From assembly GCA_910575755.1 (NCBI GenBank), contig CAJTFO010000004.1, forward strand, positions 78,494-142,493: a stretch of 64,000 bases of DNA. The letters run 5' to 3'. The stretch's first letter is position 1. The number at the start of each line of letters is the position of its first letter. This DNA comes from Desulfovibrionaceae bacterium (GTDB lineage: Bacteria > Desulfobacterota > Desulfovibrionia > Desulfovibrionales > Desulfovibrionaceae). The notes under the pieces are model-generated. The model made no database searches, had not been told where the DNA came from, and worked only from the letters and a program-made list of their open reading frames with translations. Shown in pieces: positions 17,213 through 18,278 of this stretch. The position numbers and the translations under genes were made by a program.

Positions 17213-18278
17213 CTAGTCGATATAAAGATCGTCAAAATATACGGGAAGAGCATCTTTTGTTTTTATATTAAATGCCTTCAGTGCCCTATTACGCTTCTCG
17301 TCATCCCAATATTCATCCACGCAGCGACACTTCATGCACAACTTGTTTTGATACCATCCATGAAAATCATTAACTGTATTTCTTATAAGCTGTATTCTTT
17401 CGTTGTTCCATAACTTATGCAAATCTCCAAGTGCATTCTCGCTCGCTCTTATTCCAGTATTTCCCTTGCAACAGTAGTTGATACAAAAATCGCCCTTATA
17501 GTCCATATATATCATCATGAATGTGAAGGGCTCAAAGCATATGCTCTCTCTCTCTCTCTCTCTCTCTCTCTCTCTCAATTGAATGAGGGTAGGAAAGTTT
17601 AATGCGTGACATGTCTGCATATCGTTTCATATCGACATATATGGATTTGTTAATATCAAGTGAATAAGATGAGGATGGCATTTCGTATTTATATCTTCTC
17701 AAAGGAACCCTGCCTGGTTTTAGCTCTATTTCATTGAAGTTATATTTCTTTGCAAGATTAATAAATTTTGGAATTGAACTGATTGTCTCTCGCAACAAAA
17801 CAAGGCTAAGGCGTACATAGAGATGAGAAGGCTTCTTTTTCGCCAGTTCTTTTAAATTTTGCATGGATCTGTCAAGGTTCCCACGGTGCATGATGTTGGT
17901 ATAGGTACGTTGATCCACAGCATTTTGTGAAATATGAATTTCATTACAATTATGCAGAGTTGCATCCAATTTTCTGCCATGCAGTGCAAGGCCATTTGTA
18001 TACAACATGATAGAAGCGTCTGGAGACATTTTTCTGAATGTTTCAATAATATTACAGTATTGAGGATGTGTGAGAGCTTCTCCTGAACCCGCGATGCAAA
18101 TTCTTTTTACAGATCGCAGCCAGTGCATGTTCCGTACTGTTTCCAATGCGAGAAATCTGGGATGCACCTTGTCATGATTGAATCCACAAAAACGGCAACG
18201 CTGATTGCAGACATTTGATATTATGATAGTAAGAGTTGCAGGGGCAGTGCAGGGAAGAATATTCGCATGATTTGTCAT
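17213..18278 (-). CDS. Radical SAM/SPASM protein, frame broken at a (GA)n tract (probably phase-variable)
   Basis: The N-terminal 230 residues are a radical SAM domain: TIIISNVCNQRCRFCGFNHD gives CX3CX2C, followed by the ICIAGSGEALTHP glycine motif and LYTNGLALHG. The C-terminal ~125 residues are a SPASM-type domain with SICFEPF, FCINYCCKG, the GDLHKLWNNERIQLIR signature and CMKCRC. The two halves lie in different frames that meet inside a 33-bp GA tract encoding an Arg-Glu run. As sequenced, the frame stops five codons after the tract (REHML*). One extra GA unit, or loss of two, would give an intact ~355-residue protein. AGGAG lies 7 bp before the 18278 ATG. Composition is AT-rich, unlike its neighbours. 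The substrate is unknown; such proteins modify peptides or act on sulfatases and cofactors. Confidence 0.85.
17544..17576 (-). repeat. (GA)n dinucleotide tract inside the radical SAM/SPASM gene
   Basis: 33 bp of uninterrupted CT on the plus strand (GA on the coding strand), about 16.5 units. Every frame through it encodes alternating Glu and Arg, so length change alters only the downstream frame and never creates a stop inside the tract. Confidence 0.97.

What the first reader, a model, noticed from the sequence alone, without database searches (positions are those of the whole stretch)
17213..18278. Radical SAM/SPASM gene under apparent phase variation by a (GA)n tract
The radical SAM half (CNQRCRFC) and the SPASM half (SICFEPF, FCINYCC, CMKCRC) are in different frames that meet within a 33-bp GA tract. 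Both halves are otherwise intact, including RBS and start, so this does not look like random decay. One added GA unit, or two lost, restores a protein of about 355 residues. All frames through the tract encode Glu-Arg, so it works as a pure frame switch between the catalytic core and the auxiliary-cluster domain. Contingency loci usually affect surface or restriction genes; phase-variable control of a radical SAM maturase would be unusual.
Basis: partly seen in the sequence, partly recalled or inferred. Interest (0 to 1): 0.85.

Follow-up and report, generated by a model that had tools for sequence, protein, structure and literature searches.

The report
GA-tract switch in radical-SAM glycan gene
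A gut-type sulfate reducer carries an enzyme gene cut in two, at the hinge between its two domains, by a slippery GA repeat; it is one of about twenty such repeats in this genome, most of those identified lying in or next to genes for surface sugars, flagella and signalling, so it looks like one switch in a larger surface-variation system rather than an isolated oddity.

Summary
A perfect 33-bp GA tract (17544-17576) separates an intact radical SAM half (18278->17532) from an intact SPASM half in another frame. Three relatives (38-44% identical) carry both halves in one unbroken 334-342 aa frame without any tract; the tract sits exactly in their short disordered linker, just before the first SPASM cysteine. 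The phase-variation reading is well supported, but the gene is not a lone curiosity. The genome has 20 long GA tracts. They lie in or beside sulfotransferases, methyltransferases, O-acyltransferases, glycosyltransferases, flagellin, GGDEF genes and FOUR radical SAM genes, one of them a second rSAM/SPASM with the tract at the same junction and in frame. Homologous GA tracts in the genus differ in length (36/40, 46/60, 33/38 bp) between flanks 91-99.8% identical. Best explanation: an OFF-phase contingency gene of a surface-glycan phasome. A peptide-maturase role is unsupported: no precursor peptide, no RiPP family reaches its cut-off, and the closest homologue with readable context lies in a glycan cluster. 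Precedent for phase-variable rSAM genes exists (Campylobacter fetus, poly-G, PMC6321876). Not shown: actual length change of this tract, enzymatic activity, substrate.

The parts
17577..18278 (-). radical SAM core half (CX3CX2C = CNQRCRFC), 234 codons from the ATG to the tract
   Evidence: Pfam Radical_SAM PF04055 E=6.4e-18; ORF 17532..18278; profile A2 positions 7-215 E=4e-63
17544..17576 (-). (GA)16.5 tract, 33 bp, coding-strand GA; replaces the linker of intact relatives
17213..17543 (-). SPASM-type auxiliary cluster half, 109 codons in a different frame, ends YFDDLYID and stop
   Evidence: homologous over its whole length to L097, L098, L099; profile positions 226-338 E=1e-27; PF13186 itself not matched
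18279..18295 (-). ribosome-binding site region (AGGAG) upstream of the ATG
   Evidence: direct reading
17190..18560 (.). AT-rich island (about 37-40% G+C against about 62%) holding the single gene, between ahbC (15942-17126 +) and a MobB-like gene (ATG 18750 +)
   Evidence: no matching sequence beyond ahbC in the five syntenic regions compared

Best explanation
This is a horizontally acquired radical SAM/SPASM enzyme gene under slipped-strand phase variation, assembled in its OFF phase. Gain or loss of GA units during replication moves the SPASM domain in or out of frame. One register in three gives the full enzyme of about 353-357 aa with an (ER)n linker; the other two give a core of about 248-253 aa without auxiliary-cluster domain, presumably inactive. 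It belongs to a genome-wide GA-tract phasome that diversifies surface glycans and flagella. The enzyme most likely performs a radical modification of a surface sugar or glycan (for example deoxygenation, epimerisation or C-C/C-N chemistry), so switching yields alternative surface structures in a clonal population. SHOWN by sequence: tract, frames, intact halves, tract-free relatives, other tract genes, length differences among homologous tracts. INFERRED: switching of this tract, inactivity of the short form, glycan substrate.
For: Both halves intact and homologous end to end to relatives with no tract; all five cysteines C235, C257, C258, C302, C305 of the relatives are kept in the SPASM half. 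The linker of the relatives is low-confidence/disordered (residues 227-238, pLDDT <50). The genome has 20 GA tracts of at least 19 bp plus one AC tract. Coding tracts lie in two sulfotransferases (38 bp in frame; 33 bp out), a methyltransferase (out), two radical SAM genes (42 and 39 bp, out), an rSAM/SPASM gene with the tract at the same rSAM/SPASM junction (51 bp, in frame), an FkbM methyltransferase and an acyltransferase-3. Others lie just upstream of AT3-SGNH and MBOAT O-acyltransferases and flagellin, or at the start of GGDEF, outer-membrane efflux and DUF6056 genes. Radical SAM genes are 4 of about 13 genes with tracts in or at the start of the frame, against 31 radical SAM matches in the genome (P about 1e-5 assuming 2500 genes). 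Homologous tracts with different lengths: L211/L213 36/40 bp (flanks 99.8% and 91%), L223/L224 46/60 (97%, 95%), L083 paralogues 33/38 (95%, 92%). The homologue in G070 lies in a cluster with a methyltransferase, ATP-grasp and DegT sugar aminotransferase.
Against: Only one genome of the species was available and no reads, so variation at this locus is not observed; stutter could have changed the assembled length by a unit. MutS and MutL are present, so dinucleotide slippage is not expected to be unusually fast. The glycan role rests on genome context and distant homologues; the gene stands alone between ahbC and a MobB-like gene, without glycan genes beside it. Fold matches (SuiB, viperin, DesII, BlsE) do not choose a substrate.
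Confidence: 0.62

Rival explanations
1. Phase-variable as above, but the enzyme is a peptide (RiPP) or metalloenzyme maturase.
For: Weak similarity of the core to TIGR04317 (tungsten oxidoreductase maturase), TIGR04311, HxsC; best Foldseek match is SuiB, a RiPP enzyme.
Against: All curated cut-offs missed by a wide margin (for example 60 bits against 380). No convincing precursor peptide among the small ORFs of the island. The closest homologue with readable context lies with glycan-type genes, and the other tract genes are surface genes.
Confidence: 0.12
2. Ordinary pseudogene: an acquired gene in which a GA tract happened to expand and break the frame, now drifting.
For: Out of frame as assembled; lone AT-rich island; a related GA-tract radical SAM gene in G037 (L143) carries additional stops, so such genes do decay.
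Against: No other stop or frameshift in either half, all cysteines and the start signal kept; open SPASM frame improbable by chance; same-junction paralogue is in frame; tracts recur in functionally coherent genes.
Confidence: 0.13
3. Assembly artefact: the true tract length is in frame and the gene is simply ON.
For: Draft assembly of 61 contigs; dinucleotide stutter is common; two of the sister tracts are in frame.
Against: 33 bp is spanned easily by short reads; most coding tracts in the genome are out of frame, close to the 1-in-3 in-frame share expected from random registers.
Confidence: 0.08
4. Domain switch rather than ON/OFF: the short 248-253 aa core is itself active (viperin-like or MoaA-like core without SPASM) with another reaction.
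For: The core keeps a complete CX3CX2C barrel; weak pVip model matches and viperin fold matches.
Against: pVip scores are weak and end inside the shared barrel; known SPASM enzymes need the auxiliary cluster (established knowledge); no close relative without SPASM found.
Confidence: 0.05

Closest known systems
Poly-G phase-variable radical SAM genes of Campylobacter fetus (CFT03427_1545, CFT03427_1558; PMC6321876 Table 1)
   Same: Radical SAM (MoaA/NifB/PqqE/SkfB type) genes with a slippery repeat, listed in a phasome rich in methyl- and formyltransferases and surface genes
   Different: Homopolymer G tract of 9-10 bp in Campylobacter; here a 33-bp GA dinucleotide tract exactly at the rSAM/SPASM junction in a Desulfovibrionaceae-like genome
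Phase-variable surface-glycan genes of Campylobacter and Neisseria (for example Cj1295 flagellin glycan modification, PMC3068675; phasomes in PMC5953494)
   Same: Simple-repeat frame switching of enzymes that decorate surface glycans; many loci per genome
   Different: Mostly G/C homopolymers or tetranucleotides (own knowledge and abstracts); no Desulfovibrio phasome found in the held library
AG-repeat phase-variable type III methyltransferase of Mycoplasma mycoides (PMC3498834)
   Same: AG/GA dinucleotide repeat inside an ORF leading to premature stop
   Different: DNA methyltransferase, 12 AG units
L084:1523-2782, rSAM/SPASM paralogue in the same genome (G000:C2)
   Same: GA tract (51 bp) between radical SAM core and SPASM
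   Different: In frame; carries an extra C-terminal NPDV/HY module; sits in a cluster with sulfotransferases and glycosyltransferases

Membership tests
Simple-sequence-repeat contingency (phase-variable) locus | Long perfect short-unit repeat inside the reading frame, far above chance | tested here: met
   33 bp (GA)16.5; 0 of 100 shuffles
Simple-sequence-repeat contingency (phase-variable) locus | Coding sequence intact on both sides so that a change in unit number restores the frame | tested here: met
Simple-sequence-repeat contingency (phase-variable) locus | Repeat number differs among isolates or within a population at this locus | not testable with these tools
   No reads, one genome per species. 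Homologous tracts elsewhere in the genus do differ
Simple-sequence-repeat contingency (phase-variable) locus | Reversible change of expression and phenotype | not testable with these tools
   needs culture
Radical SAM superfamily | CX3CX2C motif and PF04055 above its cut-off | tested here: met
   65.9 bits against 29.5
SPASM/twitch-containing radical SAM enzymes | C-terminal auxiliary cluster domain with conserved cysteines | tested here: inconclusive
   PF13186 not matched by the half alone, but five cysteines conserved with relatives and the fold of a relative matches SuiB, SkfB and PqqE
RiPP radical SAM maturases (NCBIfam equivalogs) | Equivalog score above curated cut-off | tested here: not met
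   best 59.9 bits against 380; relatives likewise
RiPP radical SAM maturases (NCBIfam equivalogs) | Adjacent precursor peptide gene | tested here: not met
   no convincing candidate among small ORFs 17127-18740
Prokaryotic viperin (pVip) | Full-length match to viperin family model | tested here: not met
   partial 33-45 bit matches in the shared barrel; 31 bits against 180 for NF038283

The most novel reading that the evidence does not exclude
Members of this Desulfovibrio-like genus carry a GA-dinucleotide phasome in which radical SAM enzymes are a preferred target. The tract sits at domain junctions and acts both as a frame switch and, through recombination between tracts, as a joint for shuffling catalytic cores with C-terminal modules (sulfotransferase, radical SAM and SGNH-like cores all join an NPDV/HY module through GA).
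Probability: 0.3. Interest if true: 0.75.

Novelty: new variant of a known kind. Interest (0 to 1): 0.55.

Why it matters
Surface phase variation is best known from mucosal pathogens. A phasome of about 20 GA tracts in a gut-type sulfate reducer, absent by this test from many species of the same genus, would make clonal surface diversity in commensal sulfate reducers directly testable (phage escape, immune recognition, mucus binding). It also points to a group of radical SAM enzymes that probably act on surface glycans, a reaction class with few characterised members, with naturally occurring ON and OFF forms to compare.

Tried and rejected
A scan of the named genome collection with the radical SAM half found only one distant (24%) hit. 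PDB sequence search with the intact relative found nothing. Folding the in-frame paralogue without an alignment gave an uninterpretable model, mean pLDDT 33. An empty-site test failed: the regions after ahbC in five relatives share nothing with the window beyond ahbC, so acquisition rests on composition and patchy distribution only. A first synteny script used a wrong frame for the MobB protein and was rerun. Loss of mismatch repair as the cause of tract abundance was rejected: MutS and MutL are present. The G037 gene with two GA tracts (L143) was not used as support for function because it has further stops.

Full report
OBSERVATION. The gene runs on the minus strand from ATG 18278. The radical SAM half is open to a perfect 33-bp GA tract (17544-17576) and, as assembled, ends three residues after it (248 aa). 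The SPASM half follows immediately in another register and is open for 109 codons to 17213. An 18-bp CT run is never seen in 100 shuffles of the window; an open stretch of 109 codons at this composition has a probability of about 0.0006. Pfam finds Radical_SAM in the first half (65.9 bits); the second half alone matches no Pfam or NCBIfam model.

BOTH HALVES ARE ONE GENE. A search of 198 relatives with the radical SAM half found three close homologues: G070 and G068 (44%, same genus) and G079 (40%, same family). Each has a single uninterrupted frame of 334-342 aa from its start codon. The alignment covers both halves of the window gene to the last residue: radical SAM half 88/214, SPASM half 40/111 identities to L097. 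The five C-terminal cysteines invariant among the relatives are kept. The relatives have no tract; where the window has (RE)n they have a short linker (NRDRGCGD), which AlphaFold predicts with low confidence, as disordered linkers are (residues 227-238), directly before the first SPASM cysteine. A profile of the three relatives recovers the two window halves separately with E=4e-63 and 1e-27, missing only the linker. So the tract lies where the protein tolerates length change, and the break separates catalytic core from auxiliary domain.

NOT A LONE TRACT. The genome (2.83 Mb, 61 contigs) holds 20 long GA tracts and one AC tract. Seven lie on contig C2 between 246 and 263 kb or nearby at 268 kb. 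They cut or join two sulfotransferase paralogues (38 bp in frame, 33 bp out), a methyltransferase (46 bp, out), two radical SAM genes (42 and 39 bp, out of frame with a C-terminal module with NPDV and HY motifs), an rSAM/SPASM gene with the tract at the same junction as in the window gene (51 bp, in frame), and an FkbM methyltransferase, with glycosyltransferases in between. Elsewhere tracts lie in an acyltransferase-3 and an MptE-like gene, at the start of a GGDEF gene, a DUF6056 membrane protein and an outer-membrane efflux protein (whose signal peptide would be (Leu-Ser)n), and just upstream of AT3-SGNH and MBOAT O-acyltransferases and a flagellin; two lie near tyrosine recombinases and one near glycosyltransferases. 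Radical SAM genes make up 4 of about 13 genes with a tract in or at the start of the frame, against 31 radical SAM matches in the genome; the hypergeometric probability is about 1e-5, taking 2500 genes as an estimate.

DO GA TRACTS CHANGE LENGTH? Reads and further strains were not available, so this tract could not be tested. Homologous tracts elsewhere differ: L211/L213 in two genomes (flanks 99.8% and 91% identical; 36 and 40 bp), L223/L224 (97% and 95%; 46 and 60 bp), the sulfotransferase paralogues (95% and 92%; 33 and 38 bp), L106/L142 (81% and 76%; 25 and 36 bp), and the flagellin-upstream family L091/L094/L096/L217 (25/36/42/42 bp). Tracts with about ten or more units, split by starting base into two searches, occur in 18 and in 23 of 79 genomes of the genus. 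MutS and MutL are present, so there is no reason to expect an unusually high rate.

WHAT THE ENZYME MAY DO. No curated family reaches its cut-off. The fold of the closest relative resembles SPASM and other radical SAM enzymes of several chemistries (SuiB, SkfB, PqqE, DesII, BlsE, viperin), which does not decide the substrate. The homologue in G070 sits with a methyltransferase, an ATP-grasp protein and a DegT/DnrJ sugar aminotransferase. Together with the nature of the other tract genes this favours a surface sugar or glycan. No convincing precursor peptide lies in the island. The gene is AT-rich (about 37-40% G+C against about 62%) and has close homologues in only three of 198 relatives, consistent with horizontal acquisition; an empty site could not be shown.

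KNOWN. PhasomeIt lists two poly-G radical SAM genes in the Campylobacter fetus phasome (PMC6321876), so phase-variable radical SAM genes are not new. No description of a Desulfovibrio phasome was found in the held library, which misses most subscription journals. What appears new is the GA-dinucleotide phasome in this genus with several radical SAM genes, and the switch exactly between radical SAM core and SPASM, seen twice in one genome.

CONFIDENCE. Tract, frames and intact halves: certain. Phase-variable locus: about 0.8. OFF as assembled: about 0.9. Glycan-directed enzyme: about 0.6. Combined explanation: 0.62, taking the phase-variation part as the core of the claim and the glycan substrate as its weakest step.

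Noticed in passing
window 5912-5948: A second long dinucleotide tract, (AC)18.5, the only long AC tract found in this genome; it lies near what reads like a flagellin N-terminal remnant (about 6130-6310) and upstream of a sensor-type ORF with a GGDEF-like C-terminal end (6294-8414).
   Followed up: partly
L083 and L084 (G000:C2:240000-275000): Cluster of phase-variable genes in which sulfotransferase and radical SAM cores are joined through GA tracts to a C-terminal module with NPDV and HY motifs; the module tested alone had no Pfam match. The same architecture occurs in G043 (L112) behind an SGNH-like core.
   Followed up: partly
L091, L094, L096 (G000) and L217 (G020): The flank upstream of a GA/CT tract next to flagellin is conserved, but sequence diverges right after the tract, as if tracts were recombination joints.
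   Followed up: partly
L093:3537-3575: A CT tract would encode a (Leu-Ser)n signal-peptide core of an outer-membrane efflux protein; it appears out of frame as assembled.
   Followed up: no
L143 (G037:C1:828000-834000): A radical SAM gene with two GA tracts, one at the rSAM/SPASM junction, but with further stops: apparently a decayed example.
   Followed up: partly
L092 and L095: Tyrosine recombinase genes with GA tracts upstream (38 and 20 bp) and about 95% identical flanks on one side only.
   Followed up: no
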